The notes below the pieces were generated by a model that saw nothing but the letters and a program-made list of their open reading frames with translations, did no database searches and was not told where the DNA came from. A stretch of 64,000 nucleotides of DNA from a virus: IMG/VR virus record IMGVR_UViG_3300042261_001452, positions 1 through 64,000 of that record, one strand, 5' to 3'. This document shows, in pieces, positions 9,047 to 61,414 of this stretch. The translations under genes were made by a program, and so were the position numbers. Positions within the stretch are counted from its first letter, which is position 1; each line of letters begins with the position of its first letter.

Positions 9047-9071
9047 AAAATAGAATAATATTGTCTATATT

Positions 9072-16486: not shown

Positions 16487-16711
16487 TTAATCCTTCTTTT
16501 TTCTCCAATCTGTTGTTCCTTTTACTTTATCAACAATAGAAGCGCAATATGCTCCGGGATTATCTTTATCTTTATTTTTTTCGATACATTCATCTATAAA
16601 GCCATGTTTTTTTGGAGAATGCTTATATTTTTTCTTTTTAGCTTCTGTATTTAGCCAACCAGTTTTTGATCCAATTAATTCCCACTGGGCTTTTGATAAT
16701 TTAATTCTCAT
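16487..16711 (-). CDS. Small basic protein with LSKAQWxxIGxKTGW start motif
   Basis: 74 aa. It opens MRIKLSKAQWELIGSKTGW, the motif shared with genes at 28032 and 24311 and with an internal segment of the 218-aa gene next door. The second half (GFIDECIEKNKDKDNPGAYCASIVDKVKGTTDWR) has two cysteines and a 'NPGAYCASI' pattern found in short phage proteins of unknown role. It could bind nucleic acid, being highly basic (KKKKYKHSPKKHG). Function unknown. Confidence 0.55.
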   Translation of the reverse strand: MRIKLSKAQWELIGSKTGWLNTEAKKKKYKHSPKKHGFIDECIEKNKDKDNPGAYCASIVDKVKGTTDWRKKKD

Positions 16712-28409: not shown

Positions 28410-28642
28410 ATCTTCTCTTCCTTTTTAATTTGTCTTATTTGAATTTTACCACCACAGTTTTTACATTTTTTAAATCCATATTGATCTTTAATTACTTTAG
28501 GATTTACTTCTCCGCAATATTGACAATATCTTTCTATATTCTTCTTTAGAAAGTCTTTCAATAATTCACTGGGAGACGTTTCCTCTTCTTGATTATCTTG
28601 CGATATTCTAAATATTCTCATATAAAATAATTCAAGAAACAT
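28406..28642 (-). CDS. Zinc-ribbon small protein (78 aa)
   Basis: A four-cysteine ribbon is plain: CQYCGE ... CKNCGGK. The long start at 28642 has AAAGGA eight bases upstream, which favours it. An in-frame methionine at 28621 gives MRIFRISQ, the tag-like start seen in other genes here, so that start is also possible (71 aa). It overlaps the next gene by 4 bases. It may bind RNA, DNA or a protein partner. Confidence 0.6.
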   Translation of the reverse strand: MFLELFYMRIFRISQDNQEEETSPSELLKDFLKKNIERYCQYCGEVNPKVIKDQYGFKKCKNCGGKIQIRQIKKEEKI

Positions 28643-34640: not shown

Positions 34641-36344
34641 ATTTTCTCCTTCTTTTTGCTTTTTGGTTAGACTTGCAAATGTTTCTAATAACTTAATAGA
34701 AGCTTCTCTTGGTGAATTTTTAATTGTTGTTTTGTCATCTTCCGTCAAATCCTCATATGTCCAAACAATCCTATCTTCTTCAGAATTTAGTTTATTCTCT
34801 GCGACAATTATGAAAGAATCATCTTTCTTACTTATCGTCAGGCGATTTTCATTATCCTGAATAGAAGGCATTTCTTTTATATACTCGAAAAAGTCTTGTT
34901 TTTCCTTCCAAGAATTTGACAAAATTTGCATTACTCTCTCTTTCTGCTCATTTTTAGCAGCTAAAGTTCTTCTTTTAGACATATTAGACATATCTAAATC
35001 TCCCATTTTGTTCAGTTTTTCATTTAAATTTGCTACTTTTAAGAACATTTCTTCCTGTGATAGCTTATTGTTATTATTACTTATACTGCAAGAACAATTA
35101 TTTTCTGCAACTTTTTGAATTATATTATCTTCTTGAGAGGCTTTTGGTCTAATAGGTGCCGTAATAGGTAGTTTAGGTAATTTTAATGCGGAAGACTTAG
35201 CAGGAGCAGAAGCAGGTGTTTCTACTGTTGCAGGAGTTGCTTCTGGTGTTTCTTCGGCACTAATAGGTGTTGGAACAGCCCCACCAGCAGCAGGAGTATT
35301 AGGAGTAGGTACAGGAGCAGGAGCGGGAGCAGCAGGAGCTTGTCCTTCTTCTACATTGCCTGCTGTTCCGGGGACTCCACTATCTTGAAGATTGCCATAA
35401 CCAGCACCAACTAGTTCATCTACCCATGTTTGTAAATTAGAAAGAATCTCTACAAGATCAGTAGAAAACTCCATTTCTACTTGTTTTCTATTCTTAATTA
35501 AATTAATAGCGATATTTTCTAGTGTTTGTAAAACTTGCTCTAAGTCTTTAATTTCTTGTTGACCAGCAGTTTTATTTAAAGAAGCTGTCTTAACTAGATA
35601 ATCTCTTACTGTATTTTCAAGGTTAGCAGCTTTTGTTAGAAAATCATCATTATGAATAATTCCTTGAATATGGCATGTTGGGCAAGCAGGATCTACTACT
35701 GCACTTAATTCAATAAACTTAAGGCCATAATTATACTCATAAACTGGATGATCTTTAAATGTCTTAAATTCTCCAGTTATTACATCTCTTGCTTTTCCAC
35801 TGAATTTTCTACCTTTCTTTTCTTTAATATGAGAACAATATTGCTCTGTTTTTTCGGCCTTATTATGACAAATATTACATACAGAATATTCAACGCTGCA
35901 ACCCATCGAAACACCACTCACGTATTCTTCTTCAATACCTCTGCAAATATCTGGATAAGCATCTCTATCTACGAAAGCTACTGTATAAACTGATTTATCT
36001 GAGGGATTCCATCTTGCAAAAATTACTTTTCCTCTAGCATTTTCAATATTTTGATTATTATGATTTGTAAATATTGGTACTCCTTCAAAGGTCTTATAAG
36101 CTTTTACAAGTTCTTCTTCTGAGAAATAATCTCCATTAGAATTCATCTTATTGGCTTCAATAGCTTTTGCTTCGAAAAATAAGGCATTTGGATGCTTTTT
36201 AATCTCAGCAGAAACAATCTTAGATACCTCACTAGAAGGATCAATATTAATGCGACCAGAAGCAGCAGTCCGCATCATATAATTAGAACCATTATTTTCT
36301 ATTGGAGTAACATTAGAAAATGATAAAGCTATTTTTCTTAACAT
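30816..36344 (-). CDS. Giant prohead protease-scaffold polyprotein
   Basis: 1842 aa. Residues 60-240 carry a prohead serine protease of the herpes-assemblin/T4 gp21 type: NGDYFSEEEL, histidine H95 in GVPIFTNHN, and serine S146 in YVSGVSMGCS. A C-x-x-C...C-x-H insert (156-175) may bind zinc. The following 1600 residues are unlike any single family. They hold coiled coils, P/A/G-rich linkers, six 'EKQL' repeats (about 582-690), two four-cysteine ribbons (CPECG...CQKCG; CPACG...CPSC) and six 'RKDAYMGKEKDADS' repeats. A start with strong ribosome site lies inside at 34640. The gene is directly downstream of the 860-aa gene and before the capsid genes, so a combined protease and scaffold is likely. 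Confidence 0.75.
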   Translation of the reverse strand: MLRKIALSFSNVTPIENNGSNYMMRTAASGRINIDPSSEVSKIVSAEIKKHPNALFFEAKAIEANKMNSNGDYFSEEELVKAYKTFEGVPIFTNHNNQNIENARGKVIFARWNPSDKSVYTVAFVDRDAYPDICRGIEEEYVSGVSMGCSVEYSVCNICHNKAEKTEQYCSHIKEKKGRKFSGKARDVITGEFKTFKDHPVYEYNYGLKFIELSAVVDPACPTCHIQGIIHNDDFLTKAANLENTVRDYLVKTASLNKTAGQQEIKDLEQVLQTLENIAINLIKNRKQVEMEFSTDLVEILSNLQTWVDELVGAGYGNLQDSGVPGTAGNVEEGQAPAAPAPAPVPTPNTPAAGGAVPTPISAEETPEATPATVETPASAPAKSSALKLPKLPITAPIRPKASQEDNIIQKVAENNCSCSISNNNNKLSQEEMFLKVANLNEKLNKMGDLDMSNMSKRRTLAAKNEQKERVMQILSNSWKEKQDFFEYIKEMPSIQDNENRLTISKKDDSFIIVAENKLNSEEDRIVWTYEDLTEDDKTTIKNSPREASIKLLETFASLTKKQKEGENMATEINKSAGATSVNKAPEVITEKQLEQKDLYHARTGVDAEQVTQAQLEAKRKGEQEVVTEKQLDSKRENATPEVISEKQLEAVRENTDANQITQAQLADYRAKSEKDVITEKQLDDISAPWARSASRDPKQFKSAADHMAAVVEAAANTIITAGCTPEEVQLVASSMVDSVKNRYYLATSILEQTEDKEDINYAKRIAFWNNKNLKVASAGKQQIAEILVGGLRKIATDSTINPDVLIDALEVVSEETAVPVITKKVEEKLASTKEVKKTSRKEELRNALLASTVDKAVDSKKQRETERKEILAALEKGQKRQANNILNPKGLNGADTVIETNFSELGSTKESATFKKDIRSFAKGALASQNIKLAAVTNVTISGDTIQIAVQTDEGDQEVEIPVGDTTQPETEEIVPEGDMTGEGVDALSALPPAAPAAAPTGAAPAMAPTMASKKVALKKIAQSPMGGGVPGTPGGVAASGAPEQALPGAAPQGDAIQSLTMDAPAEGKEIAEDIPTVGEQQMPWTICPECGTSDVDVTNDKGNIKGTCQKCGAEYEALLKKEVEFKIIKPTVSVGKTPGKGEPEGAEAPEAPAEVPALPVAAQTRIDKGSIRRIGSNVKAHGHVCPACGKKNCTASKEDDGHTEFTCPSCKTEVVKDILIAAANPKESYLRVKWDLRHDTKCQGCEEKAAKFASSLKMTKMLKAATQNKDSFPMANCIERMARSYGGNTVATFGPCKGKALADCVCKSLQRLAFTKVKDMIRLAEASLQKDPMDECIADQKKQGYNLKEASDICGCIKKAKASEHADNIYVHAFGKDVVAGKEDRLTKYDLITLQKIDQEAVAAAQKKVVAAKEAELEKDIGSDLPALKEAEVEVEIVKEAKTDKAPVKSEEKKEEKKEEKNEVKEICKKECECNKADCEECKAKADNTAKEVEAMASHRVLKVGEEIVKIAKTPTLVKTIENNVEAGVPRKDAYMGKEKEADSLINKKMNSPNVPRKDAYMGQEQSANSLINKPLKGPDVPVGNSLMGDEVNTQKGMPAINNEIKGTVIAGDKNVTKEAKQMKVVDTVEKDADVPRKDAYMGKEKDADSAINTPNKGPDVPRQEAYMGQEKDADSLINKPLKGPDVPMNNAYMGNEKEIQKDMPEINDEMLKVVRQQREDQVSKIAKAREQQATKIAAWLIANNRLANDMDAYESAIKALSTFEIDKIASVADKLFPVKTAARVASTVSDTNEAGHAIPAIMLESKSESKGLKDKLASAFTIGSKDFDQKLTIYGYQGE
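31229..31760 (-). repeat. Repeat array coding RKDAYMGKEKDADSLIN units
   Basis: At least six imperfect units of about 25-30 residues, of the form (P)xVPRKDAYMG(K/Q)E(K/Q)xADSxIN(K/T), with two variants (VPVGNSLMGDE, VPMNNAYMGNE). They lie near the C-terminus of the 1842-aa protein. Confidence 0.85.
34280..34600 (-). repeat. Repeat array coding VITEKQL / QITQAQL units
   Basis: Six units with EVITEKQLE, QVTQAQLEA, EVVTEKQLD, EVISEKQLE, QITQAQLAD and DVITEKQLD, about 17-20 residues apart, right after the internal start. A related pattern occurs at the start of the 450-aa protein next to terL. Confidence 0.85.
34638..34651 (-). promoter_or_regulatory. Internal ribosome binding site AAGGAG-AAAAT-ATG
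   Basis: AGGAG at 34650-34646, spacing 5, ATG at 34640-34638, inside an open frame. It is as strong as the sites of the capsid and tail tube genes. Confidence 0.7.
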
Positions 36345-39509: not shown

Positions 39510-42500
39510 TCAAGAATTAGCAGGCGAATTATTTTGATTCTTTTCTGCCTGAGCAACTTGATTTTGGAAATACATTTGTTTTTGCATTACAGTCTTAACA
39601 ATCTTTTGTATTACTTGAGGCATTCTTTTATCTACATCTGTATCCCAAAATCTTACTGTAGTCCAGCCTTGTTGAGCCAATAACTTATCTCTTTCTTGAT
39701 CTTTAGCCTTTTGCTTAGGAGCAGTATGGAAGATTTCTCCATCTACTTCTACTGCAACCTTAAGTTGAGGGAAAGCAAAGTCAATAACATATTCTTCCCC
39801 ATTAGCTTGCACTCTATATTGAGGAACAATTACTAAATTTCCTAATAGTCCATCATTTTGAGCTTGTTTAAGAGGGCCTATTAATTTTCTTTCTGCTCCA
39901 GTAAAGGCAATTCTTCCCTTTTCATCTCTTATTTGTCCATCTGTGCCTTTTTCATATGAAATTTCACTTGCCTTTGTTTCATGTCTTTGTTGTCTCATTT
40001 GATCACTAAGAAATTTGGCTCTTGTCTTTTGTTTTAGAATTTTTCCACCAAATTGACCCGGATCAGCTACTTCAGCAGTAACAGAAGATGCCTTTGAAAT
40101 TGGAGGCCCACCTACACCACCGCCAACAGGTTCAGATGGTGCGCCCATATCTCCACCGGGGGCTATTGGGGGTTCTCCGCCTCCGCCTCCGCCTCCTCCA
40201 CCGCCACCACCAAGCATTGCGCCTAATCCTCCTAATCCACCGCCCCCTCCACCGGAACCGCCTGCTTCTCCTTGTTGACCTTGACCCAATGCCATCATTT
40301 GTAGTGAGTCATATTTCTTTCTCTCAATTTCCTGATCTGGATCAAAATCAAAGGCTTCCAATACTGTTTGAGCACTTAATAATCCTTTCTCATATAATTG
40401 AATTACAAATTGTCTATATTGTTGTTGATCTCTTAAATGCATTGAATTCCATTTAATTTTAGGAACAATATATTCTATCTCTTCCCCTTCATCATCCTCG
40501 TCAATAAATCCTTGTCTTTTAGCTTCTGGAATATAAATTGATTCCATCAGCCAAGAAGTAATACTCTCTCTAAATGTAGTTAATCTTTGAATCATTGCTT
40601 CAATACCAACTGCTGCTGCGCTATTCCCATGAACGCCAAATAAGCCATTTCTTTCAGTAATTATAAAATGGTTTGGAACTTCGACACACCAAACCTTACC
40701 TACATAATCTTCATCAAAAATAACTTGTTTGCTAGTTTGTGACTCAGTAGCCATATCTCTAGAAGTTAGCGTTGGAAATCTTCCAATATTTTCTTTGTCA
40801 GACCAGCTTATCGTATATTGCGTTTGTAGATTTGGACTATCAAACATAATCTTAGTAAATCTTGGACTATATCCTAATTTAAGCAATATTTCTATTACGT
40901 CATCTCGTAATTGTGTTGAAACGGTTGTATAGCTATAACATTTTTTATCTGTTGGCTTTTTCTTTGTTGCATCTCTTTCGCTGCCATCTCCATCTACCAA
41001 CGCCTCTAGTAAAATAGCTAGATTTTTAGAATCCATATTTTTTAATTCATATGGAAGACACTTCGTATTTGCTTTATCTCCAGTATTATTTGCTAAATAT
41101 TGAACAAGTTCTCTATTCATAGAATTTGAAATAATAAAAGCATCAAGATTAGATGGAAGAGTATGAAAAATATTATTAGCCTCTAAAGTATTTTTCATTT
41201 TAGCATATGTAATTCTATTAGCTGTAGAACTTTGAGCGATTCCTATTGAATAAATGTTGCCAGTATTTGCATCTTTTATTTTCCATCCTTCACTAACATA
41301 CCATCCAACAATTTTTAAGAAATCAGGAGTCTTTATCCCAAAATATTCTCCTTTATCTTCCGTTGTTCCATTCCATTTATCAACACAAGCTCTAAATCTA
41401 TAGCGATTTTTAACTTTTGAAGCATCCATTACTTGCCAATTGCCATATTCTTCTTTTTTAAATGAAATTTTTCTAGGAGCGCAGAGCATCTTATGGTTTG
41501 GAGTAACTAACATATCGATTCTCTTGGTCAAAAAATGTTTCATCGGAGCATCTTTTCCATCAACAGAATTATAATTATATTCCCACTTTTTGATAGCCTT
41601 TTGATATTCTAATGCTCCTGTTTCCTTATTAAAAGTAGCTATTAGATCTTTTTCAATATCTAATTCTGACCTATACTTTAATCCATTGTTAGTTAATATT
41701 CTGGAATCATCTGACAGGCAAAAATTAGGGCCTTCGCCGTTTAATAATGCATTATTAATCATCATACCATCAAGTATTTCTTGATTAATAAATTCAAACT
41801 CATTATTTAATGTTAAGATTTTTCCAGAAGCGCCAACGAAGTCGATATCAAATGCATGGTGAGTAATAATTGCAAGATTAGGATCATTGGCTGTTGCAGC
41901 TACGCTTGCCTGAACTGCTGCAATATCGGCTGGGCCAGCAGGACGTTCATCACTACCTACTTTAACTAATTTAATAGGAACTATTAATCTTTCAGCAACA
42001 ATCCATTGAGCAACCATTAATTTTGTCTTATAAGAAAGAGTAGGAAATAATCTTCTTACCATACCAATTCCATATTTTTCATATCCACATTCGCCATATT
42101 TAAGGTGAGAAACATTGCGATTATCAAGTCTAATAGGTTGGCCACTAGCAATTAATTTAATTACTTCAGGTGATAATTTTTCATATCCGGGAATTTTCCT
42201 TGATACCATATTTATTAGTTCTTCATCTGGTCTTAAGGCAATTATTGGCTCTGGATTAAGTGGATTGGTTAGTACCTCTACATAGTCTGGATTTAAAATA
42301 ATTAGTCTTTTTACAGTTCCACCATTATGTTCGCAAATATCAGTTCCAATTCTTCCAGACCCATTACATTCTGGGCAAGATATTTCTACCATTGGGAAAC
42401 AATCTCCAAGAAGATGAACTTCATGGCTAATTAATCGGCACCAGTACGGTAGTTTTAATCTTATTTTAAGTTTATCAAAGTGTTTTTTAATCTTTTGATC

Positions 42501-43877
42501 TCTGCATTCATGCTCCCAATTACTCATTGGAAATAAAGAATAAAAGTCAATAGAAGAACCAACTTTAGGTTCATTTTGATAAAAGAATCTACAGTTAGAA
42601 ACTTTAAAACCTGATAGAGTATAAGATCTTTCAGGATCTATTTGCATATCATAGCCAACTCCAGAATATAGGAATTTCTTTATTTCCTTGATTGGCTGGC
42701 AAAAGTATTTTATTCCATTTTGCTCTTTAAAGAATTTAAGTTCTTGTTTTTCTTGTTTTGAATTTATCGAAATATTTTCTGGAATTCTTTCAGTCTGCAT
42801 ATATTTTTTAAATTTGCCAATATCTGCATATGAAACAGAAATCAAGTGCATGCTATCCTTGCAAGTTATATTTGCCTTTATTCCACAGCGGATCAACATC
42901 CACCAAATTTGGTCTGAAATATCTTTAGAATAACTAGTTGCATTTAGAGTATTTTCTTTGAAATCATAATATCCATCACAATCAAAATATCCCGCCAAGA
43001 CATTAAGAATTTCTTTTTCTGATAGATTAAAAATATTCTTAGTAAATTTCTTTTTGCTGGTTTGTCCAACAATATAGTTTCTAAACTGAGAATGAGTAAT
43101 GGTAGTCTTATTCTTTTTTATTAAAATAGATGTGAAAGTAGGTAGGTCATAGACAGATGAAATACTAGCTATTTTTGAAATACATAATCCTAATAGCCAT
43201 GCTTTACTATTTCCAATTGTCTCTTGGTTATTAAACGGAACACAAGGAGTTAATAGATAGTCATTAAAAGAGACATCCTTCGCTTGTTTTTTCACAATCG
43301 AATTAACTTTCTTGTCAAAAACAAATATATTGTGTTCTTCTGTTACTGAAAAATGATTACAGTGTTCGATTGCAGAAAACTTATATGATTCTTTATCTTT
43401 ACAAATTCTTTCTCCCCATTTTACAGGCTTTCTAATATTTCCATCTCCTGAAAGGATAGAAGGAGAAATAGGATCTTCATATAATATTCCATTAGTGATA
43501 GAGTCTTCGGAGATATTTCCAGATACTTCAAAGCTTTCAATATTTTGATAAGTATAGTCTTCTGCTAGAATTTGCCCACTTATTACCATCCATTGATAAA
43601 TTTCAAGTCTCTTACTTGGAATTTGCCAGTTAATATTTGTATGAACTGGAGAGAAGAAAGAAGGTTGACCATAAATAGTTCCACCACCTCCAGCAGAAGC
43701 AGTTCTCATATTTCCCCCAACATTTATGAATGCTGAAGGTGCATAATTGCTTCTAGGAATAGGTTTATAACCCGGATTCTCTGGAACGATAGTATTTTGA
43801 ACTCTTAATGGATCTCTATTTCTTAAGGCTTGAAATGTTTCAGATAAATTAGTAGTTTGAATGAGTGGGTCCGCCAT
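39510..43877 (-). CDS. Portal protein with two inteins and C-terminal Vsr/DUF559-like nuclease domain
   Basis: 1455 aa before splicing, about 757 aa after removing two inteins (residues 97-428 and 720-1085). The extein parts join into a portal: LEIYQW + CRFFYQNEPKVGSSIDFYSLFPMS, then HLLGDCFPMVEISCPECNGSG, and GEGPNF + SAAAVGIEAMIQRLTTF. After a glycine-rich linker (40100-40290), residues about 1340-1445 read YVIDFAFP, VAVEVDGEIFH (E1377, D1379), KDQERDKLLAQQGW and TVRFWDTDV. This is the restriction-like fold of Vsr/DUF559 nucleases with its acidic residues kept. The protein would form the dodecameric DNA gate of the head. Fusion of a nuclease to a portal is highly unusual; cutting or holding DNA at packaging or exit are both possible. 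Confidence 0.8.
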   Translation of the reverse strand: MADPLIQTTNLSETFQALRNRDPLRVQNTIVPENPGYKPIPRSNYAPSAFINVGGNMRTASAGGGGTIYGQPSFFSPVHTNINWQIPSKRLEIYQWMVISGQILAEDYTYQNIESFEVSGNISEDSITNGILYEDPISPSILSGDGNIRKPVKWGERICKDKESYKFSAIEHCNHFSVTEEHNIFVFDKKVNSIVKKQAKDVSFNDYLLTPCVPFNNQETIGNSKAWLLGLCISKIASISSVYDLPTFTSILIKKNKTTITHSQFRNYIVGQTSKKKFTKNIFNLSEKEILNVLAGYFDCDGYYDFKENTLNATSYSKDISDQIWWMLIRCGIKANITCKDSMHLISVSYADIGKFKKYMQTERIPENISINSKQEKQELKFFKEQNGIKYFCQPIKEIKKFLYSGVGYDMQIDPERSYTLSGFKVSNCRFFYQNEPKVGSSIDFYSLFPMSNWEHECRDQKIKKHFDKLKIRLKLPYWCRLISHEVHLLGDCFPMVEISCPECNGSGRIGTDICEHNGGTVKRLIILNPDYVEVLTNPLNPEPIIALRPDEELINMVSRKIPGYEKLSPEVIKLIASGQPIRLDNRNVSHLKYGECGYEKYGIGMVRRLFPTLSYKTKLMVAQWIVAERLIVPIKLVKVGSDERPAGPADIAAVQASVAATANDPNLAIITHHAFDIDFVGASGKILTLNNEFEFINQEILDGMMINNALLNGEGPNFCLSDDSRILTNNGLKYRSELDIEKDLIATFNKETGALEYQKAIKKWEYNYNSVDGKDAPMKHFLTKRIDMLVTPNHKMLCAPRKISFKKEEYGNWQVMDASKVKNRYRFRACVDKWNGTTEDKGEYFGIKTPDFLKIVGWYVSEGWKIKDANTGNIYSIGIAQSSTANRITYAKMKNTLEANNIFHTLPSNLDAFIISNSMNRELVQYLANNTGDKANTKCLPYELKNMDSKNLAILLEALVDGDGSERDATKKKPTDKKCYSYTTVSTQLRDDVIEILLKLGYSPRFTKIMFDSPNLQTQYTISWSDKENIGRFPTLTSRDMATESQTSKQVIFDEDYVGKVWCVEVPNHFIITERNGLFGVHGNSAAAVGIEAMIQRLTTFRESITSWLMESIYIPEAKRQGFIDEDDEGEEIEYIVPKIKWNSMHLRDQQQYRQFVIQLYEKGLLSAQTVLEAFDFDPDQEIERKKYDSLQMMALGQGQQGEAGGSGGGGGGLGGLGAMLGGGGGGGGGGGGEPPIAPGGDMGAPSEPVGGGVGGPPISKASSVTAEVADPGQFGGKILKQKTRAKFLSDQMRQQRHETKASEISYEKGTDGQIRDEKGRIAFTGAERKLIGPLKQAQNDGLLGNLVIVPQYRVQANGEEYVIDFAFPQLKVAVEVDGEIFHTAPKQKAKDQERDKLLAQQGWTTVRFWDTDVDKRMPQVIQKIVKTVMQKQMYFQNQVAQAEKNQNNSPANS
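40623..41720 (-). other. Intein 2 in portal (366 aa), LAGLIDADG type
   Basis: Begins with Cys (CLSDDSRILTNNGL), block B IDMLVTPNHKML, endonuclease motifs LKIVGWYVSEGW and LLEALVDGDGS, and ends FIITERNGLFGVHGN before Ser. All classical splice residues are present, so it should be active. It splits the portal sequence GPNF/SAAAVG. Confidence 0.92.
42594..43589 (-). other. Intein 1 in portal (332 aa), with DOD endonuclease remnant
   Basis: Splice blocks: block B HFSVTEEHNIFVF; block F YDMQIDPERSYTLSGF; block G ending KVSN followed by extein C. The endonuclease motif NVLAGYFDCDGYY is present, while the first one (WLLGLCISKIAS) is degenerate. The residue after extein W96 is methionine (MVISGQILAEDY), not Cys or Ser, and the residue before the final Asn is Ser instead of His. 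Either splicing is unusual or this intein has decayed. Confidence 0.7.
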
Positions 43878-43940: not shown

Positions 43941-45536
43941 TTATATATTCTTTTCTGAAACATTATCCTCTGAGACATCAGTTACATTAAAGTTTTCTTC
44001 TGGATTTATAGCTACAGCAGGAGTTGCAGGATTATTTGCAATATTTGTTTCATTTAATCCCAATGAATCTGCCGCTTCTTGAATTCTATTTCCATCCCCA
44101 ATAGGTTCAGCCACAATACGTTGCCAATTAGGAACCTTTAAAACTTTATCTTCAAATTGAACTCTTAATTCTGATTTAGAAGAAGATGTATCAAATCCTT
44201 TTGCGATACTAATGGTTGAATTAGGAGGAATTACAAAAGGCTCATTATTCTCTGTTAATGCCTTGACTGTCTCAGGAACAAACCAAGTGTCAGAAACACT
44301 AATGGAAGTTCCTAAGGTGGTGGCTGTAGCAAAGCTATACATTAGTCCTTCGTGTCTATCTCTTAGTTTCTTAGCTTCCTTATAAACTTGAGCAACCTTT
44401 AAGATAGTAGTATTATAATGTTTTGCAGTTGCTTCTAGCATTGTTGAAAAATCAATGCCTGCCTCTGACATATCTAAAACATCCTTAAAGATATTATAAA
44501 CATTATCATTATGTCTATTTTCTTGACTTACATGAGAAGCTATTTTAATTGTCTTATTAGCAGAAGCATTTACAGTAATATCAGAAGTTTTATTGCCTCT
44601 TGCTTCTTCTAATCTTCTTTCAGTAGAATATTGATGAGGTCTTGGGAGTCTTGTTCTCTCGCCGGGGATTAATCCCATTTGATTTCCACCATCTCTAGGA
44701 GCATCGGGATTATCAGGTGTTCCAGCATCAGGGAATACATAGAATCTATCGTTAATATATCCACCAACCCATTTGCCTTCTTTATTCATATATTCGGTTG
44801 TAAATTTATCCATGACATACATACGCCAAATAGCTTCACCACTATATACTCTAGTTGGATCTTCATCAAACTTAATATCATCAGTATAATAATGGGTAAA
44901 ATTATAGAATTTATCTCTGTCAATTCTCCAAGGAGTTCCCTCATTAAATCCATCTACTGTTCTATTCCATTTGTTTCTCATTCCTCTTACCCATCCATTT
45001 CTTTGTCTTGAGGTGCTTTGAGCCATTTTTACATTTGTATCAACATTATTGCCTTTTTGCATAGCAATTTCCATTTCATTTGATAAGTCAATTAAATGAG
45101 CATTACCATGATCACTAATAACAAAGACATTAGGATAAAATTCATCTTCTATCATTTTTTTACATAGTTGTAATCTTGTTCCAGTTACATATAGTCTTCC
45201 GTATTGATACCAATGAATATCATCTTGGGTGGAAATATCTCCTGCATTATGATCATATTCATCATCTCCTGCCTCTTGATCATATTCATCTGAGCCAAGT
45301 TCTTGAGCAACCTTAACTGTTTTCTTAAGACTATTTGCCAATACCCCAAAAAGAATAGTAGAAACCTTATCAGCTTCTTCATCTTCTTTTGTTTCAAATA
45401 TTTGTCTACAAGTATCTTTAACTCTCTGTTGATCGATTGGATTAACAATATTGACAAGCATAGAAGCTGCCTCATCTTTAGTCTTTCTGGATTTTATCCA
45501 ACCCTTTAGATCATCTGGACTAGTAAAAAATTCCAT
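43941..45536 (-). CDS. Unknown virion-region protein (531 aa)
   Basis: No family recognised. The N-terminal helical domain begins MEFFTSPDDLKGWIKSRKTKDEAASMLVNIV. The middle is beta-rich and aromatic (DGFNEGTPWRIDRDKFYNFTHYY), and the C-terminal domain has strands (TLGTSISVSDTWFVPETV, SELRVQFEDKVLKVPNW). It carries four spaced tags of the K-x-A-Q/S type (KVAQE, KMAQS, KIASH, KVAQV), the highest count in the window. It is the last gene of the operon whose upstream genes include the 329-aa and AAA+ proteins. Likely a virion component. Confidence 0.55.
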   Translation of the reverse strand: MEFFTSPDDLKGWIKSRKTKDEAASMLVNIVNPIDQQRVKDTCRQIFETKEDEEADKVSTILFGVLANSLKKTVKVAQELGSDEYDQEAGDDEYDHNAGDISTQDDIHWYQYGRLYVTGTRLQLCKKMIEDEFYPNVFVISDHGNAHLIDLSNEMEIAMQKGNNVDTNVKMAQSTSRQRNGWVRGMRNKWNRTVDGFNEGTPWRIDRDKFYNFTHYYTDDIKFDEDPTRVYSGEAIWRMYVMDKFTTEYMNKEGKWVGGYINDRFYVFPDAGTPDNPDAPRDGGNQMGLIPGERTRLPRPHQYSTERRLEEARGNKTSDITVNASANKTIKIASHVSQENRHNDNVYNIFKDVLDMSEAGIDFSTMLEATAKHYNTTILKVAQVYKEAKKLRDRHEGLMYSFATATTLGTSISVSDTWFVPETVKALTENNEPFVIPPNSTISIAKGFDTSSSKSELRVQFEDKVLKVPNWQRIVAEPIGDGNRIQEAADSLGLNETNIANNPATPAVAINPEENFNVTDVSEDNVSEKNI

Positions 45537-45537: not shown

Positions 45538-46527
45538 TTATTTCCCCTTTAGTTTTTTTTCTAGTTCTTTAGCCAATATACTAGAAACAGTTCTTGTTGC
45601 CTCTCTACTCATTTGCATAGGATCATCTTCTAATCTTTCTCTTTGAATAGATTTCTTATACTGTTGGCTTTGTTCCTTTAACATTTCGCCAGCAGTCTTA
45701 TCGGGAATCATATTCTTATCAAATCTTGAAGATATTCTTTCTGACATTGGTGAATTTAATCCATTTTGAGCATTTAATGATTCTGTTGGAAATACTAATC
45801 CCTTAGGAATAATATCTCGATGAATCATATTATTGATCATTTCAGTCTCTTGGCTTAGACGTTCTTTTTGTCTTGCTTGTTCTCTTTCAGCTTTTTCCAT
45901 CTTAAGTCTAATGCTAGTATCTTGTTCGCTACTTTCTACTAAGTTTTTAATAGCATCTGGATTAGTTATGCTATTCTGATTTTTAGCAGGATTAGTATCT
46001 GAATTAAGATTATAATTTTCTCCTCCTCTAACTGGAACAATAGCTTTATTTACTAGACTTGGAGCTTCTTTCATCTTGGCTTCTTTTGAAATTATCTGCC
46101 ATTTTTGCTTTGGCTCCTCAGAAGCGAACTTTTTATCTAAATTAAAAGGATCGCCTAATGCATTCTTAAGTTGATCTACTTTACCATTATCCTTTGATGC
46201 TATTTTAATCATAGTTTCTCCCATATTTGCTGTTTTTGTAGTAATATTAGCACATCTAAAATTCTTTTGAGATAGCCCACAAGCAAGGGCATACTCTTTA
46301 AGATGATTTATTACTTCTTTATCCCAAGATGAATTATACCAATAAGATTCATTTTTAGATGCACAAATTTCTATTTTGTCACATTCTTTAGCAATAACTT
46401 CTTCTGTTATAGAACTAGCCAAGGTTGTATTAACCATTGGAGAAATATTTTCTATTTCAAGACTAGCTGTAGCATTAATTGGCCATGCTGGTGCTTTTTG
46501 TTCATTAGCCATTTTAAATATTGTCAT
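45538..46527 (-). CDS. Unknown virion-region protein (329 aa)
   Basis: Begins MTIFKMANEQKAPAWP, with AAAGGA eight bases upstream. Early part compact, with two cysteines in spaced sites; residues 110-250 are charged linker; a long helix (SIRLKMEKAEREQARQKERLSQETEMINNMI) precedes a basic end. The tag MIKIASKDNG is near residue 110. It lies one base before the 531-aa gene. No family recognised. Confidence 0.5.
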   Translation of the reverse strand: MTIFKMANEQKAPAWPINATASLEIENISPMVNTTLASSITEEVIAKECDKIEICASKNESYWYNSSWDKEVINHLKEYALACGLSQKNFRCANITTKTANMGETMIKIASKDNGKVDQLKNALGDPFNLDKKFASEEPKQKWQIISKEAKMKEAPSLVNKAIVPVRGGENYNLNSDTNPAKNQNSITNPDAIKNLVESSEQDTSIRLKMEKAEREQARQKERLSQETEMINNMIHRDIIPKGLVFPTESLNAQNGLNSPMSERISSRFDKNMIPDKTAGEMLKEQSQQYKKSIQRERLEDDPMQMSREATRTVSSILAKELEKKLKGK

Positions 46528-52863: not shown

Positions 52864-53679
52864 TTACTTCTCATAATCTGTAACAAGAAGCTTACAGAAG
52901 TCTGGAATATAACCTAGATCATTCTTCCAGTATTCATAAATCTTTTTCTTGACAGAAGGACTAAGCTTGGCAACTCTAACCATTCCATCACTATCAGTAG
53001 AAGCACTCTTCATCTCTACTTTCTTAGAAGCCTTGCCGCTTTCTTGAATGATTTCATCTTCCTTTTTGCCTTCGCCTTCATCTTCCTTATCTTCATCACC
53101 TTCTTCTTCGTCAGTGACTTCTAGCTCAATTGCTTCTTCCTCTTCATTATCTTCATCTGTATCAGTGATTTCAACTTCAATCTCTTCGCCATTGTCTTTA
53201 TTTTCATCTTCAACAATGACTTCTGTATCTGCATCAACTGGCTCAGCTTCGTCTTCAATTTCGATTTCTACTTCTTCAGGAACAACTTTGTCACCACCAA
53301 CTACTTCCTTAACTTCCTGAACAGCCTGCTCGACCTTCTCTACTGCCTGTCCTATTTTGCCAGCTAGATCTTCAGCTTTCTTGGCTTTATCAACAAGATC
53401 AGCAACGGCCTTTTGGGCATCAGTACCAACTTCCTTGCTAATCTCGCCAACTTGAGCCATGGGTTCCTGACAAGGAGCGCAAATCTCAGTAGTTTCTCCC
53501 TCTTCAACTGTAGCCTCTATCTGAGCTTTCTTATCACTTAGATAAGATTTTGCAGCAGCAAATAGAGCGTCTTTATCTGTTTTGTCTTGTTGGGTGCCTG
53601 TAGAAGCAGTCTTAGTTAGGACTTTGCCCTTAGGACTCCAATTAAATTCTGAATTACCAACTGGTGTAATAATAGCCAT
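52864..53679 (-). CDS. Highly acidic protein with small C-terminal domain (271 aa)
   Basis: Residues 60-130 form a coiled coil (VADLVDKAKKAEDLAGKIGQAVEKVE). About 90 residues of nearly pure Glu/Asp follow. A compact end reads LSPSVKKKIYEYWKNDLGYIPDFCKLLVTDYEK. The tag KGKVLTKTASTG is near residue 20. Such charge is usual in scaffold or chaperone-like phage proteins and DNA mimics. It has its own promoter (53713-53741) and a strong terminator, so it may be made at high level. Role unknown. Confidence 0.6.
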   Translation of the reverse strand: MAIITPVGNSEFNWSPKGKVLTKTASTGTQQDKTDKDALFAAAKSYLSDKKAQIEATVEEGETTEICAPCQEPMAQVGEISKEVGTDAQKAVADLVDKAKKAEDLAGKIGQAVEKVEQAVQEVKEVVGGDKVVPEEVEIEIEDEAEPVDADTEVIVEDENKDNGEEIEVEITDTDEDNEEEEAIELEVTDEEEGDEDKEDEGEGKKEDEIIQESGKASKKVEMKSASTDSDGMVRVAKLSPSVKKKIYEYWKNDLGYIPDFCKLLVTDYEK

Positions 53680-55705: not shown

Positions 55706-58700
55706 TTAGTCTCCTATTAGTTTTTCTAATCTAAATTTCTTCAAAATATCCCTTAATTCCTCTCCATCTTTACAATTAAATAAAGTAGATATATTTTCAT
55801 TTATGTAAATTCTATACTTTTCATCAAATAATAAATTTGAATTTGATATAATTGCAACCATAAGATCTTCTGAAATATTATATCCCTCAATATTATATTT
55901 AATCGCTCTTACAATAATCATCGGATTGAGTTTAACTACTTCATTAGCATCTAAAACAGTCTCTAATGTATTATTATTTATATCTTCTACCGCTCTCCCA
56001 AGAATATCAATAATATTATTATCACATATATTAAGAGCCAATGTATTTATTGTAAAATCTCTATTGCATGCTGACCTGACTAAGCTATTTTTTAAATGTT
56101 CTTCATTTAATTCTTCAGTAAGCTTATTTAATTTTGGATAATGAGCAGATTTACTAAAATCTAGCTGTATTCCTTTATATACAAACGAAAGGCCAAAACG
56201 AGCACTTTCATAAATGTCTTCCCCACTAACGCCAAGTTTTTCCATTAAGGCATAGCCTATCTTTTGGCAAACATCTGGATTATTTGCGATAAATTCTAGT
56301 TTATTAATATTAAAGTCCTTATTAAGATAAATTCTTCTAGGCAAATCACCAATAATATAAAAATTGCTATATTCTAACTCCTTACATATATGCTTAATAT
56401 TAGATACAATAGACTTAATATTACTCTCTCTTTTCTCCTTAATACCAATAATCTTCTCTACTATATTCTTTAGCTCTTCTTTTACTTCATTATTTTGAAA
56501 ATAAGATTCACAATCATCTATTAAAGTATCTCTTAATTCTTCTGAAAAAAGCCAAATTGCACAAACATCTTCCCAATCTCCAATTGTTTTTGGAGGAATA
56601 TCATATGTATTGACTCTTATTCCATCCTTGGGCATCATTTTAATTATAAAGTCAGAGAATCCTTTATTTGTAACTATTCTACTTGCCTTGATTTTATTAT
56701 TTAGAATACTATATTCTATAGTTCTTAAAATCTTTAAAATATCAATAATTTCTTTATCTAATTGTCCTTTTTGTGCAAATCTTAAAGCTGGAGTTGTATG
56801 AGAATAATCTCTTGTCATATCATCAAATAACTGAGGACGGAATCTAGGCTCAATCCATCTATAATAAAACCCTTTGACATCATATTCTGGGTTATATCTT
56901 GGCTGCTTGCGAATTTCTTTATCACTCCATGCAAAATCTTCATCTCTATCATCCCAAGCCATTACTCTATCGCTTAATCCGGGAATAGTGCTTCCATCTG
57001 AAATATCAAGATTATTAAACCATCCAAATAGGAATCTATCTCCAGCTTTTCTCGCTTCTTTCTTAAAAGGATCATAAGAAAAAGCTTTAATATTCTCTAT
57101 CTTTAGATTTTCTGTAATAGGAATCATTAATGGCTTAGGTCTTTTATTCTCTAAAAGCATTTCGAGAGAAGTATAGCCTATAGATTCATCTCTGCTAGGC
57201 TCCAATAATTCTTCCATGATTAATTTTACATTTGGCCTAGAATCCATTCTAGTTTGTTTTCTTAATTGTTCTTCAATACTATTGTCTCTTTGAGATATAT
57301 CAGGAGCAAGATATTGTCTATTATCTCTTGCAATCTCTAACCTTCTATCGGTTGGGTCGCCTGAGCGTTGAGTTAGAATCATCGACCAATCAGGCAAAGA
57401 AGATAAATTAGATTGAGAAAGATATCTTCCTTGAATATCTGAGCCAGTAGGCTGTCCACTTAAAACAGACCCAGACATATGAGGACGAAATTGGGCTTGT
57501 TTATACCAAGAGTTACTTTGAGCATGAATTGTTTCGTGACCTACAGAAAGAGGCGTATAATATTTTTCTAAATTAGAACTCTGAAGCCGTTTCATATATT
57601 CTGAATTTACATAGTTGGTTTGCGCCCATGCTCTAAATTTAGCTTCTTCTGCTTCTGCTGGTCCTTCACTTGTAGCTCCCTTAGAGTGAGTAGCTTCATG
57701 TACAATTGTTGCAGCTAAATGATATATCCCAAGAACATTTGTTAAAATTTGCTTGATTTCACTAGGCAAATTAGGATCTTGGTTTCTTAACCCATCAATA
57801 ATATTATTAACATTTTGATTGGTGGCACTAATTATTCCGCTCATATTAAGACCAATAGCTGTTCCTCCACCACTTTCTATTTGTCTCCATAGTGAATCTA
57901 TATCTTCTTCTACCTTGGCTTGATCAATAGCATCATCTTTAGGATAGGCAAACAACATATTATTTTCATCTTTAATGATATAGCCTTTTTGTTCTAACTT
58001 CTTCTTAAGAAGATTAGTTTTAATAGCTCTATCTAAGGCTGGAACATAAACGCCAAAAGCCCCGCCTTTAGAGAAATTAAACACAAATGCTATATTTCTG
58101 AGAAAATCTCCAGAATATTTATTTACTAGTTGAATAGCTTCATTTGTTCCACCAAAGACTCCTGCAATTTGAGAGGCATCAACAGATGACGTTCCTATAA
58201 ATCTTTCAGCATGCTCGGGAATATTGCCAGAAAAATATCCATCGAAATCTGTTGGTTTTTCTATCTTCATTTGAGCATTTTTCTTTATCCCTTCATACCA
58301 ATTAGAAGCAATATTCTCATCAAACAAGTTTCTCATTCTCTTTAGTTTCTTAATTCTTTCCATTTCTGGGGAAATCGTTGAAGATGGAGTCTTTTCTTCC
58401 TCGTCTGTATCCTCTTGTGAAGCTTGTTCTGATTGTGGTAATGGCTTTACTTCTGGAGTTTGTGGAATTTTATCTTCTGCTTCCTGAGAAGGCATATCAT
58501 AATTTTTAGGTCTATTTAGTTCAAAATTCCAGTTGTTCTTTGTAGCATCAACTGGAATATAATTTATATTTTCTGATCCCACATACTTTTTCTCAGATTT
58601 TGCTGATTCAATAGCTTTTCTTAAAATAACTCTTACCTCATCTATGTTTTCTCTATATGTTTCTTGCAATGGTTGAACCTTAGATTGATTTTCACTTTCA

Positions 58701-59413
58701 AGATCAATGTATTCAAAGGCAGGAATAAATGCTGAGCTAGAAAACTCACTAAGTCCCCTACGTCTAACAATAAATAAATTCATTACCGATGCATGATAAA
58801 TTCGACTCTTCATTCTTGTTAATCTGACTAGGCCCATTATATCATATGATCCATATTTAGTTGTCTGTTCGTCATAAATGGCTTCTCGCTCAGCAATTGT
58901 GTCTGCTAGTCTTTCTTTTTCAGATTTATTTCTTTCTTTCTCTATTCTTACTTCTTCTATATATTCCTCATAATCATTAACTGTCAATGCAGATCTTGAT
59001 CCCCATGGAATTCTAAAAATAGCTAAAATTCTTCTAACTGCCTCATTATAAGGTAATTGTTTTTTACTCTTATCATACTCTACAGTAAATATAGGTTTAT
59101 TATCAAGAATGCTAAAAAGCGTGACTGTAAAAGAATTGTATTTGTCTTGACTTTTACCATATACCATTTTTAACATGTATTCTGGTCTATTTTTTACCCT
59201 ATTTGGAAGATTAATGTTCCCAATGCAGGTTTTAAAGGCAGAATCATCAGTATAAGAGAATTCTTCTTTGTTTTGCCAAATAATTCCCGGACTTTTTGAT
59301 ATTTTAAAGAAAAAATTTCTCTGAACACTATTAATATCTTTTATAGTAGCTACGTTACTTATAAAATTGAATTCTGATTGCTCAGAAGATTGTGCTTTTT
59401 TATACCAATTCAT
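55706..59413 (-). CDS. Giant protein: zinc metallopeptidase plus degenerate nucleotidyltransferase
   Basis: 1235 aa from the ATG at 59413 (MNWYKKAQSS), six bases after TATAAT. Three modules are each introduced by a WYK tag: residues 1, about 368 (ASNWYEGIKKNAQ) and about 628 (SNSWYKQAQ). The middle module holds HEATH at 571-575 followed by EGPAEAEE, a zinc HExxH protease with a third ligand. The C-terminus (1010-1235) follows the layout of CCA-type nucleotidyltransferases (GDLPRRIYLNK, CNRDFTINTLALN, LNPMIIVRAIKY) but lacks the DxD acidic pair, so it is probably inactive. It is a unique combination; I infer a fusion of at least three genes. Confidence 0.7.
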   Translation of the reverse strand: MNWYKKAQSSEQSEFNFISNVATIKDINSVQRNFFFKISKSPGIIWQNKEEFSYTDDSAFKTCIGNINLPNRVKNRPEYMLKMVYGKSQDKYNSFTVTLFSILDNKPIFTVEYDKSKKQLPYNEAVRRILAIFRIPWGSRSALTVNDYEEYIEEVRIEKERNKSEKERLADTIAEREAIYDEQTTKYGSYDIMGLVRLTRMKSRIYHASVMNLFIVRRRGLSEFSSSAFIPAFEYIDLESENQSKVQPLQETYRENIDEVRVILRKAIESAKSEKKYVGSENINYIPVDATKNNWNFELNRPKNYDMPSQEAEDKIPQTPEVKPLPQSEQASQEDTDEEEKTPSSTISPEMERIKKLKRMRNLFDENIASNWYEGIKKNAQMKIEKPTDFDGYFSGNIPEHAERFIGTSSVDASQIAGVFGGTNEAIQLVNKYSGDFLRNIAFVFNFSKGGAFGVYVPALDRAIKTNLLKKKLEQKGYIIKDENNMLFAYPKDDAIDQAKVEEDIDSLWRQIESGGGTAIGLNMSGIISATNQNVNNIIDGLRNQDPNLPSEIKQILTNVLGIYHLAATIVHEATHSKGATSEGPAEAEEAKFRAWAQTNYVNSEYMKRLQSSNLEKYYTPLSVGHETIHAQSNSWYKQAQFRPHMSGSVLSGQPTGSDIQGRYLSQSNLSSLPDWSMILTQRSGDPTDRRLEIARDNRQYLAPDISQRDNSIEEQLRKQTRMDSRPNVKLIMEELLEPSRDESIGYTSLEMLLENKRPKPLMIPITENLKIENIKAFSYDPFKKEARKAGDRFLFGWFNNLDISDGSTIPGLSDRVMAWDDRDEDFAWSDKEIRKQPRYNPEYDVKGFYYRWIEPRFRPQLFDDMTRDYSHTTPALRFAQKGQLDKEIIDILKILRTIEYSILNNKIKASRIVTNKGFSDFIIKMMPKDGIRVNTYDIPPKTIGDWEDVCAIWLFSEELRDTLIDDCESYFQNNEVKEELKNIVEKIIGIKEKRESNIKSIVSNIKHICKELEYSNFYIIGDLPRRIYLNKDFNINKLEFIANNPDVCQKIGYALMEKLGVSGEDIYESARFGLSFVYKGIQLDFSKSAHYPKLNKLTEELNEEHLKNSLVRSACNRDFTINTLALNICDNNIIDILGRAVEDINNNTLETVLDANEVVKLNPMIIVRAIKYNIEGYNISEDLMVAIISNSNLLFDEKYRIYINENISTLFNCKDGEELRDILKKFRLEKLIGD

Positions 59414-59511: not shown

Positions 59512-59859
59512 TTAAACGCCAAAGCCTTTATCTAAGGCTCTTTGAGTGCTTTGTGGATCAAGATCTTCAAGAGTTCTAAGACCCTTTGACTTTTCTTTCT
59601 GTGGAGTCTTAGCAGTAGGAGCCTGTACTCTACTTAAATGTTTAGTAGCTTCTTCTAGTCCTTCTGCTGTTAGTCCTGAATCTAGCTTATCCTCACCTTC
59701 GGCTAGCATATCTATTAGTGTTTGGTCTAACCCATCAGAACAACTAGATCCTTCAGAGTGTCCAAGAATATGATAGGCTGCACTGCCACTTTCCATATCA
59801 AGAGTAATTTGGATTGTTCTTTTTCCCTTTCCTGCTGCGGCTAATTTAAATATTTTCAT
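59512..59859 (-). CDS. DUF2997-like small protein (115 aa)
   Basis: MKIFKLAAAGKGKRTIQITLDMESGSAAYHILGHSEGSSCSDGLDQTLIDML... The core (residues 12-52) resembles DUF2997: two strands, then G-x-S-C and a helix. A low-complexity C-terminus follows (QAPTAKTPQKEKSKG). It lies 17 bases after a gene resembling DUF1257, and those two domains are often neighbours in bacterial operons that also contain an AAA+ ATPase. Family call by pattern only. Confidence 0.4.
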   Translation of the reverse strand: MKIFKLAAAGKGKRTIQITLDMESGSAAYHILGHSEGSSCSDGLDQTLIDMLAEGEDKLDSGLTAEGLEEATKHLSRVQAPTAKTPQKEKSKGLRTLEDLDPQSTQRALDKGFGV

Positions 59860-60343: not shown

Positions 60344-61414
60344 TTATTTAATATCTTTTAAAAATTGTTCTAAATAGATAGATGATAATCCTGCATTTAG
60401 GCCATACTCACCAACATCTGAAACAATTGCCGTCAACATTCCTATTACTTTCCCATTATTTATATTAACTATTGGACACCCACTATTGCCGGGGAAAGCT
60501 GATAAATCAACAAATATATAGTCTGGAGCATTTGTATAATTGTAAATTCGTCTATTTAAACTTCCAATTGTTCCAAATGTCACATTATTCTCAAATCCAT
60601 GCGGACTTCCTACTGCCATTATATCTAACCCAATAGTAATGCTTTGCCGATTATCTAATTCAAAAGGCTCTACATCTATATCTGCCCTTAATAATGCAAT
60701 ATCTAATGTTGGATTAACTTTTTCAATAACTGCTGGATATTTTTGATTATTTTGCATTAAGAATATTTGAATATTATTAGATATTCCAACGTTTTCCATT
60801 TCTTTTCTAGCAGCATTATTATTTTTATCATATCTTGAAATGACATGAGCGCAAGTTAAGAATAATCCAGGACCAATACAAAATGCAGATCCAATTTCTC
60901 TAACTCCTTTTAGTGCATTAATACTTTCAACCATAAAAGTCTTTTCAAGAGCTTCTGCAATAACTATAGCCTTATTATTCTGGGCAATTCTAGTTAATGA
61001 TATTGAAGATATCCCTTTGTCTTTTAAGTTTGATATATATTTCTGAGCAGAATAATAAGAAGAAAAAGTTTTTGCTCCACCGGGAACTTTAACTCTCCAT
61101 TTTTCCATATTTAATTGACCTATAGGAAGCATACCCTCTAAGATAGACATATCCATTTGTTCTCTTTTATATTGTCCACCATCTTCCTTATAAGATTTGC
61201 CTACATCTTCGCCCCATGTTTGCGGAGACATTTCAGACCAATCTCCTCCACCACTTGGTATACGATATTTTTTACCCTCTAAAGCATCTTGCAAGGTAAA
61301 AACATTGTTAGCTGGAATAACTGATTTATCCGTAATCGGACTTAATCCAGTTCCCGGACTAATTATTTCAGGCATAAAGGTTCTTGATTCTTTTATTATG
61401 GGTTTCTTTTCCAT
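60344..61414 (-). CDS. Trypsin-like serine protease (HtrA/S1C type)
   Basis: 356 aa. The catalytic triad is visible: His190 in FLTCAHVIS, Asp238 in NPTLDIALL, Ser311 in FPGNSGCPIV. The preceding glycine motif GSAFCIGPGLFLTCAHV is typical. There is no PDZ domain and no signal peptide. About 160 residues precede the protease part and include KTFSSYYSAQKYISNL, perhaps an inhibitory or targeting region. In a head-packaging group next to the terminase it could be a second maturation protease, besides the prohead protease at 36 kb. The ribosome site is weak. Confidence 0.88.
   Translation of the reverse strand: MEKKPIIKESRTFMPEIISPGTGLSPITDKSVIPANNVFTLQDALEGKKYRIPSGGGDWSEMSPQTWGEDVGKSYKEDGGQYKREQMDMSILEGMLPIGQLNMEKWRVKVPGGAKTFSSYYSAQKYISNLKDKGISSISLTRIAQNNKAIVIAEALEKTFMVESINALKGVREIGSAFCIGPGLFLTCAHVISRYDKNNNAARKEMENVGISNNIQIFLMQNNQKYPAVIEKVNPTLDIALLRADIDVEPFELDNRQSITIGLDIMAVGSPHGFENNVTFGTIGSLNRRIYNYTNAPDYIFVDLSAFPGNSGCPIVNINNGKVIGMLTAIVSDVGEYGLNAGLSSIYLEQFLKDIK

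What the first reader, a model, noticed from the sequence alone, without database searches (positions are those of the whole stretch)
55706..59413. Recurrent N-W-Y-K-x-A-Q tag at protein starts and module joints
The 1235-aa protein has the tag at residue 1 and again where each new module begins (about 368 and 628). The 440-aa, 362-aa and 254-aa proteins carry it as well (NNWYKTSS, NNWYKTAV, DDWYKEGG). A peptide that marks both starts and joints could be a processing or virion-targeting signal left behind in gene fusions, similar in idea to the T4 capsid targeting sequence.
Basis: partly seen in the sequence, partly recalled or inferred. Interest (0 to 1): 0.74.

Follow-up and report, generated by a model that had tools for sequence, protein, structure and literature searches.

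The report
Virion address tag on phage proteins
A short start tag (such as M-N-W-Y-K-x-A-Q) is stuck onto dozens of otherwise unrelated proteins in giant phages related to phage G, and also sits at the joints of fused proteins; it most likely directs these proteins into the virus head, from which they would be cut free and injected into the host.

Summary
The 440- and 362-aa proteins carry it only internally, and the 254-aa match is weak. The phenomenon is much larger than the window. The window is a fragment of a huge phage with a phage-G-like capsid. In its relatives, M-N-W-Y-K-x-A-Q, the interchangeable M-K-I-[FIY]-K-I-A and, in phage G itself, M-K-R-L-I-K-K-[AS] begin tens of unrelated genes, while random internal 8-mers do not cluster. 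The bodies include ADP-ribosyltransferases, GNATs, kinases and a Thoeris inhibitor (Tad6), the kind of cargo T4 injects. The tags share a core, (hydrophobic)-K-x-A-[QSA]. That core is conserved in variable linkers of head-cluster proteins and flanks the head-maturation protease domain in several homologs. In nine homologs of the 1235-aa protein the module-2/3 joint always keeps WY[KR]x[AS]Q. Best reading: a capsid-targeting propeptide ending in the prohead protease's cleavage site, functionally like T4's CTS but unrelated in sequence, and also used inside fused proteins. Packaging and cleavage are inferred; no virion proteomics was available.

The parts
55706..59413 (-). 1235-aa multidomain protein: module 1 (res 1-370), module 2 (res ~382-630, conserved HExxH, putative metallopeptidase), module 3 (res 642-1235, C-terminal CCA-adding/poly(A) polymerase head remnant)
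59390..59413 (-). N-terminal tag MNWYKKAQ of the 1235-aa protein
58271..58303 (-). joint of modules 1 and 2: degenerate tag NWYEGIKKNAQ; relatives start here with MKIIKVSQ / MKIHKIGQ / MKIIRLAQ or keep internal KIAQ / KVSQ
57491..57514 (-). joint of modules 2 and 3: tag NSWYKQAQ, kept as WY[KR]x[AS]Q in all 9 homologs; its W,Y,K,A,Q are the only invariant residues between 622 and 657
11337..11360 (-). internal NNWYKTSS (res 325-332) of the 440-aa protein
12548..12568 (-). internal NNWYKTA (res 284-290) of the 362-aa protein, after repeat 2 of a tandem duplication
12968..12988 (-). internal NIIKVAK (res 144-150) of the 362-aa protein, at the equivalent joint after repeat 1: class-B tag where the other joint has class A
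13394..13417 (-). N-terminal MRIFKLNK (class B-like) of the 362-aa protein
24679..24702 (+). N-terminal tag MKIFKISQ on a Tpt1/RNA 2'-phosphotransferase-like (ART-fold) protein; its homolog in record G011 carries MNWYKQAQ
28598..28621 (-). N-terminal tag MRIFRISQ of a small zinc-ribbon-like protein
59836..59859 (-). N-terminal tag MKIFKLAA of the 115-aa protein
46504..46527 (-). N-terminal MTIFKMAN of the 329-aa head-cluster protein
46195..46209 (-). conserved linker motif IKIAS (IKTAS/VKTAS in homologs) of the 329-aa protein
30816..36344 (-). 1842-aa head maturation protease polyprotein
36327..36344 (-). N-terminal M-L-R-K-I-A of the protease polyprotein; M1, K4 and A6 are the only invariant residues in the first 50 of the aligned fusion proteins
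36258..36278 (-). MMRTAAS just before the protease domain (LVKLAS, FVRTAA, MIKTAS, QIKTAS, NVKFAS in relatives; LVKTAA in phage G gp19)
35643..36206 (-). head maturation protease domain (PHROG 18299/2774), residues 47-234
35580..35597 (-). LVKTAS just after the protease domain, conserved as Phi-[KR]-T-A-[SA] in four homologs
34011..34025 (-). linker motif LKVAS in the protease polyprotein
33273..33287 (-). linker motif KKIAQ (KKQAQ, KKEAQ, KKTAQ, QKKAQ in homologs) in a poorly conserved linker
45018..45032 (-). linker motif VKMAQ of the 531-aa head-cluster protein
44535..44549 (-). linker motif IKIAS of the 531-aa head-cluster protein
53602..53616 (-). motif TKTAS of the 271-aa acidic protein
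60980..60994 (-). motif TRIAQ just before the trypsin-like domain of the 356-aa protein
29011..29877 (-). major capsid protein (PHROG 2522), 56% identical to Bacillus phage G gp27
39510..43877 (-). portal protein with N- and C-terminal extensions; MRTAS at residues 56-60 in the N-terminal extension

Best explanation
The tag is a short capsid-targeting propeptide of phage-G-lineage huge phages. Its outer half (N-W-Y, K-I-F/Y/I or K-R-L-I) would be recognised by the assembling prohead core; this step is inferred. Its inner half, (hydrophobic)-K-x-A-[QSA], is the cleavage site of the phage's own head maturation protease; this is inferred from conservation. Dozens of unrelated proteins, many resembling host-takeover or anti-defence enzymes, carry it at their start, would be packed into the head, trimmed, and ejected into the host with the DNA. 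Fused cargo proteins keep one copy at each module joint, so one gene could give several separate injected proteins. Shown: the tag, its N-terminal enrichment, its interchange between classes on homologous bodies, its conservation at joints, and the same core in head-protein linkers and around the protease. Inferred: packaging, cutting and injection.
For: (1) Add-on peptide: 109 tagged proteins share only M-N-W-Y-K-x-A, with 3% mean column identity overall. Homologous bodies occur with class A, class B or no tag: 80374 MRIYKIA and G001 MNWYKKA; 24679 MKIFKISQ and G011 MNWYKQAQ; G001 MNWYKKAQ and G009 MRVIRTA; the kinase MNNSKTLYIMRG and MNWYKKAQNKKTLYIMRG. (2) Protein-level selection: codons vary at Y, K, A and Q, and the internal joint tag is kept in 9/9 homologs in a drifting linker. 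(3) Link to head assembly: [KR]xA[QS] is conserved at 8 sites, 6 in low-conservation linkers, against 0-2 sites for each of 11 permuted motifs. It is enriched in some head-rich records (26 against 5.8, 20 against 7.5, 22 against 9.5) and not in one non-head stretch (23 against 22.6). It stands just before the protease domain in 8/8 homologs including phage G, and after it in several. All 12 records with this capsid family also carry the protease polyprotein. (4) Cargo like T4's: ART-like proteins, 10 of 10 tagged (8 of these were seeds chosen as tagged); GNATs; zeta-toxin-like kinases; Tad6; against topoisomerase, RNR, helicase and primase in untagged controls. (5) The same method recovers T4's known CTS on IPII and IPIII. 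(6) Phage G and two relatives with the same capsid family carry their own tag, MKRLIKK[AS].
Against: No virion proteomics, cleavage mapping or packaging assay was available; the phage G virion paper is not held. Eleven of 23 tag-bearing records show neither the capsid nor the protease family, though many are fragments. Many class-A proteins depart from the full core: position 7 is A or S in about two thirds, and G011 uses MNWYKxIK[IL]ALP. Some tagged bodies (G6PD, ParB-like) are not obvious effectors. The major capsid protein shows no clear site. Only about a quarter of MCP-bearing loci show a tag within 10 kb (20 of 80). In phage G tagged genes also lie among replication genes.
Confidence: 0.7

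Rival explanations
1. The motif is a docking site only: it binds the prohead core, the protease or the portal and brings proteins into the head, but it is not cut; conserved linker copies are scaffold-binding sites.
For: The outer half of the tag (NWY, KIF, KRL) is as conserved as the K-x-A core. In T4 targeting and processing residues are separable (PMC9026906).
Against: The K-x-A-[QSA] core alone, without the outer half, is what recurs in linkers, on both sides of the protease domain and at the third joint (KTAT-LFGW), as expected of a cleavage site.
Confidence: 0.13
2. The tag addresses proteins to a place inside the infected cell (membrane patch, replication compartment, DNA-bound complex) rather than to the virion.
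For: Tagged phage G genes lie among replication genes. Some cargo (nucleotidyltransferase, kinase, G6PD) would make sense in the cytoplasm.
Against: Does not explain the same core in head proteins and around the head maturation protease, nor the ART and Thoeris-inhibitor cargo as well.
Confidence: 0.1
3. The tag is a DNA- or RNA-level feature (ribosome binding, leader sequence) or an N-end stability signal.
For: It sits mostly at gene starts.
Against: Synonymous codons vary freely; copies in mid-protein are conserved over 9 homologs; class A and class B have unrelated DNA yet interchange on homologous bodies.
Confidence: 0.03
4. The tagged genes are old duplicates that have diverged everywhere except at the start, so the tag is a relic of common descent.
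For: Runs of tagged genes are adjacent (G001 4570-8683, G011 69505-78183, G020 1817-12960).
Against: Bodies belong to unrelated families (ART, GNAT, P-loop kinase, G6PD, rhodanese, Tad6), and homologous bodies carry different tags.
Confidence: 0.02

Closest known systems
T4 capsid targeting sequence (CTS) of the internal proteins IPI-III and Alt, cut by gp21
   Same: Short N-terminal peptide shared by unrelated cargo; cargo of anti-defence inhibitors and an ADP-ribosyltransferase; followed by a short cleavage motif; found again here by the same N-terminus clustering (PMC9026906, PMC12373910).
   Different: No sequence similarity (MKTYQEFIAEA; cleavage after L/I-x-E); up to about 25 carriers per genome instead of a handful; also placed at internal joints of fused proteins; two interchangeable tag classes in one phage.
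phiKZ / SPN3US head-protein propeptides cut at S/A-x-E
   Same: Many head proteins of a giant phage, including the portal, carry propeptides with one short cleavage motif (PMC5694885, PMC9026906).
   Different: Those propeptides are mostly long (over 100 residues) and motif-poor; here about 8 residues with a strict consensus and K-x-A instead of x-E.
Bacillus (Lysinibacillus) phage G
   Same: Same capsid family (MCP 56% identical) and a related protease with LVKTAA before its domain; it carries its own tag, MKRLIKK[AS], on about 25 ORFs including six ART-like proteins.
   Different: Different tag sequence; protease encoded alone (285 aa), not in an 1842-aa polyprotein; no homolog of the 1235-aa protein.
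Polyvalent proteins / ART-PolyVal proteins of phages and conjugative elements
   Same: Multi-domain proteins with ART and metallopeptidase domains thought to enter the host with DNA (own knowledge; two tagged proteins match Pfam ART-PolyVal).
   Different: No short shared address peptide has been described for them, as far as I know.

Membership tests
T4-type capsid targeting sequence (CTS) | About 10-residue N-terminal peptide shared by proteins with otherwise unrelated bodies | tested here: met
   109 tagged proteins share only MNWYKxA; bodies from unrelated families
T4-type capsid targeting sequence (CTS) | Sequence homology to MKTYQEFIAEA and cleavage motif L/I-x-E | tested here: not met
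   Consensus M-N-W-Y-K-x-A-Q or M-K-I-[FIY]-K-I-A; no E at the site
T4-type capsid targeting sequence (CTS) | Phage encodes a prohead protease in the head gene cluster | tested here: met
   PHROG head maturation protease in the window and in 12 of 23 tag-bearing records, always together with the capsid family
T4-type capsid targeting sequence (CTS) | The tag is sufficient to bring a protein into the head | not testable with these tools
   needs a packaging assay
T4-type capsid targeting sequence (CTS) | The tag is removed by the prohead protease | tested here: inconclusive
   K-x-A-[QSA] flanks the protease domain and is conserved in head-protein linkers; no peptide-level proof
phiKZ-type S/A-x-E propeptide system | Cleavage after glutamate at S/A-x-E | tested here: not met
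   the conserved linker motif has no glutamate at the site
Phage G lineage (Donellivirus-like huge phages) | PHROG 2522 major capsid protein and related head maturation protease | tested here: met
   MCP 56% identical to gp27; protease profile finds phage G gp19 at E 6e-43

The most novel reading that the evidence does not exclude
Phage-G-lineage giant phages use a lineage-specific peptide address to load a large, fast-changing set of effector enzymes into their heads. The same peptide inside fused proteins makes them polyproteins that the prohead protease cuts into separate injected parts. Any protein could join the cargo by gaining 8 residues.
Probability: 0.45. Interest if true: 0.9.

Novelty: new variant of a known kind. 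Interest (0 to 1): 0.8.

Why it matters
If true, the tag is a readable label: one could list the candidate injected proteins of a huge phage, mostly unknown genes with some anti-defence and host-takeover candidates, from sequence alone, as was done with the T-even internal proteins. It also suggests the cleavage motif of an uncharacterised head maturation protease, gives cultured phage G a testable set of virion cargo, and could offer a packaging tag for the largest cultured phage capsid.

Tried and rejected
Literature search for the tag string found nothing relevant. The phage G virion proteomics paper (doi 10.1016/j.jmb.2020.05.016) is not held; the phage G tail paper names mass-spectrometry hits only in the tail region. 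WYKxAQ is absent from phage G, Tunturi_5, LR745208 and Rctr197k; de novo clustering then found phage G's own tag, and nothing in Tunturi_5 or LR745208. The tag is not a general feature of this capsid family: 20 of 80 MCP loci show class A, B or C near the MCP. A cellular origin was rejected. Structure of module 2 (pLDDT 85) matched nothing in the PDB; module 3 folded badly (pLDDT 47). The phage G pattern also hits Streptococcus-phage-like proteins starting MKRLIKKAAIGMVAFF; I read these as chance matches to a signal peptide. Permuted and reversed motifs served as controls throughout. No cultured phage encodes a homolog of the 1235-aa protein.
Full report
What was checked. The ORF at 55706-59413 (-) is 1235 aa and begins MNWYKKAQ. 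A second exact copy, NSWYKQAQ, is at residues 634-641, and a degenerate one, NWYEGIKKNAQ, at 371-381. The 440-aa and 362-aa proteins have NNWYKT inside, and the 254-aa one has a weak match at residue 19.

Chance. The window is part of an 86,639-base virus record, which holds exactly two WYKxAQ-coding matches, both in this gene, and none for the pattern read backwards. In IMG/VR the full ATG-N-W-Y-K-x-A-Q pattern gave 26 stretches, nearly all at the starts of ORFs with unrelated bodies and several per contig. In 22 of these records WYKxAQ matches abound (one to eight each), with none for the backwards control. A residue-swapped pattern gave 2 stretches. In 84,980 bacterial and archaeal genomes it gave 4 matches, none at the start of an ORF of 40 aa or more. 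In ten records W[YF][KR]x[AS] is 69 times denser in the first 12 residues than elsewhere. The records were chosen for having at least one tag, so the figure is inflated, but hits such as MNWFKFA and MNWYKKAS were not part of the choice. Gene starts were called with a simple rule, not a gene finder.

A larger system. Clustering ORF starts without any prior pattern gave one or more tag families in most tag-bearing records of useful length: class A MNWYKxAQ (G020, G009, G005, G001, G002, G003, G010, G011, G017), class B MKI[FIY]KIA (8 ORFs in the window's record; also G001, G010, G006) and, in cultured Bacillus phage G, MKRLIKK[AS] on about 25 ORFs. Random internal 8-mers never give clusters above 2 (4 in phage G). 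Two other phages with distant capsid relatives give none of 3 or more. The method recovers T4's known capsid targeting sequence on IPII and IPIII. Some listed clusters, such as MKIRxGFVSNSS in G017 or MIKPIILD in G006, may be paralogs or other tags and were not used.

Which phages. The window's major capsid protein is 56% identical to phage G gp27. Twelve of 23 tag-bearing records carry this capsid family, and the same 12 carry a protein, mostly around 1,850-2,300 aa, with a head maturation protease domain. Two further records with phage G's tag also carry the capsid family.

The tag is an add-on. Aligning 109 tagged proteins leaves only MNWYKxA conserved. The same body occurs with different tags or none in different phages: 80374 (MRIYKIA) and G001 (MNWYKKA), 24679 (MKIFKISQ) and G011 (MNWYKQAQ), 75150 and G005, G001 and G009. 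In the 362-aa window protein, a tandem duplication (26% identity, E 3e-13), the joint after repeat 1 is FEFASNKNIIKVAK and the equivalent joint after repeat 2 is FEFASSNNWYKTAV: class B and class A at the same place.

Joints. The 1235-aa protein has relatives of 794-1129 aa. Several begin at module 2 with a start tag (MKIIKVSQ, MKIHKIGQ, MKIIRLAQ), exactly where the window has its first joint; two fused relatives keep KIAQ or KVSQ there. At the module-2/3 joint all nine sequences have WY[KR]x[AS]Q although the linker drifts. At least two of these (WYRFAQ, WYRFSQ) do not fit the search pattern, so they were not selected for it. In the four-sequence alignment W636, Y637, K638, A640 and Q641 are the only invariant residues between 622 and 657. 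A third joint shows K-x-A-T before LFGW. Module 2 has an invariant HExxH and folds with good confidence but matches no solved structure; calling it a metallopeptidase is inference. Module 3 ends in a CCA-adding enzyme-like region.

Link to the head. In alignments of window proteins with relatives, [KR]xA[QS] is conserved at 8 places, 6 of them in poorly conserved linkers, while 11 permuted motifs give 0-2 places each and 1 low-conservation place in total. The places lie in the protease polyprotein, the 531-, 329- and 356-aa head-cluster proteins and the 1235-aa protein; a related KTAS is shared by three homologs of the 271-aa protein. The protease domain is preceded by such a site in all eight homologs examined, including phage G's stand-alone gp19 (LVKTAA), and followed by one in several. 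The five aligned polyproteins begin M-x-x-K-x-A, and M1, K4 and A6 are the only invariant residues in the first 50. This is the pattern expected of a protease with cleavage sites on both sides.

Cargo. Tagged proteins match GNAT acetyltransferases (6), ADP-ribosyltransferase-type folds, P-loop kinases resembling zeta toxin, ParB-like proteins, a 2H phosphoesterase, a cyclic-phosphate receiver domain, a nucleoside deoxyribosyltransferase and Tad6, an inhibitor of Thoeris defence. A size-matched untagged set matches topoisomerase, ribonucleotide reductase, helicase, primase and similar. An ART profile found ten ART-like ORFs, all tagged; eight were seeds picked as tagged, so only two are independent. 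T4 packs and injects an ADP-ribosyltransferase (Alt) and anti-restriction internal proteins with its CTS (PMC5694885, PMC9026906, PMC12373910).

Reading. The simplest account is a capsid-targeting propeptide ending in the prohead protease's cleavage site, analogous to T4's CTS but not homologous to it. Herpesvirus assemblin, a distant relative of such proteases, cuts A|S (own knowledge), so K-x-A|[SQA] is plausible. Steps shown: existence, extent, interchange, joint conservation and the shared core with head proteins. Steps inferred: recognition by the core, cutting, packaging and injection.

Limits. No proteomics could be read. Records are metagenomic fragments without known hosts. Eleven tag-bearing records lack the capsid and protease families in the part that is held. 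Position 7 of class A is A or S in only about two thirds of tags.

Noticed in passing
G009 (IMGVR_UViG_3300025131_011243) about 58732-65652; similar ~2,270-2,300-aa ORFs in L092, L093, L098: The head maturation protease domain is split by about 350 residues beginning SMG-CFTPDMRVLMNDGT, which looks like an intein inserted at the conserved GVSMGCSVE motif.
   Followed up: partly
window 16487-16711, 28032-28409, 24311-24682; 74064-74351 and 79961-80269 of the record: A third recurrent start, M[KR]IKLSKxQWxxxGxxAGW, on five small ORFs of this record and others in G002 and G003; possibly another address tag or a small domain.
   Followed up: partly
G017 88790-93388: Eleven adjacent ORFs start MKIRxGFVSNSS with different continuations.
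   Followed up: no
G006 33144-54393: About 17 ORFs start M-I-K-[PT]-I-[IT]-L-[DEN] with different continuations.
   Followed up: no
window 13564-14748 (+): LAGLIDADG homing endonuclease gene on the opposite strand.
   Followed up: no
window 60344-61414 (-): Trypsin-like peptidase with TRIAQ/QRIAQ/SRVAQ conserved just before its catalytic domain in four relatives; possibly a second head-associated protease.
   Followed up: partly
window 26022-28025 (-) and 55706-56100 (-): A full CCA-adding enzyme with HD domain and, separately, a degenerate CCA-enzyme head at the end of the 1235-aa protein; a relative in G009 carries MNWYRKVSQ at its start.
   Followed up: partly
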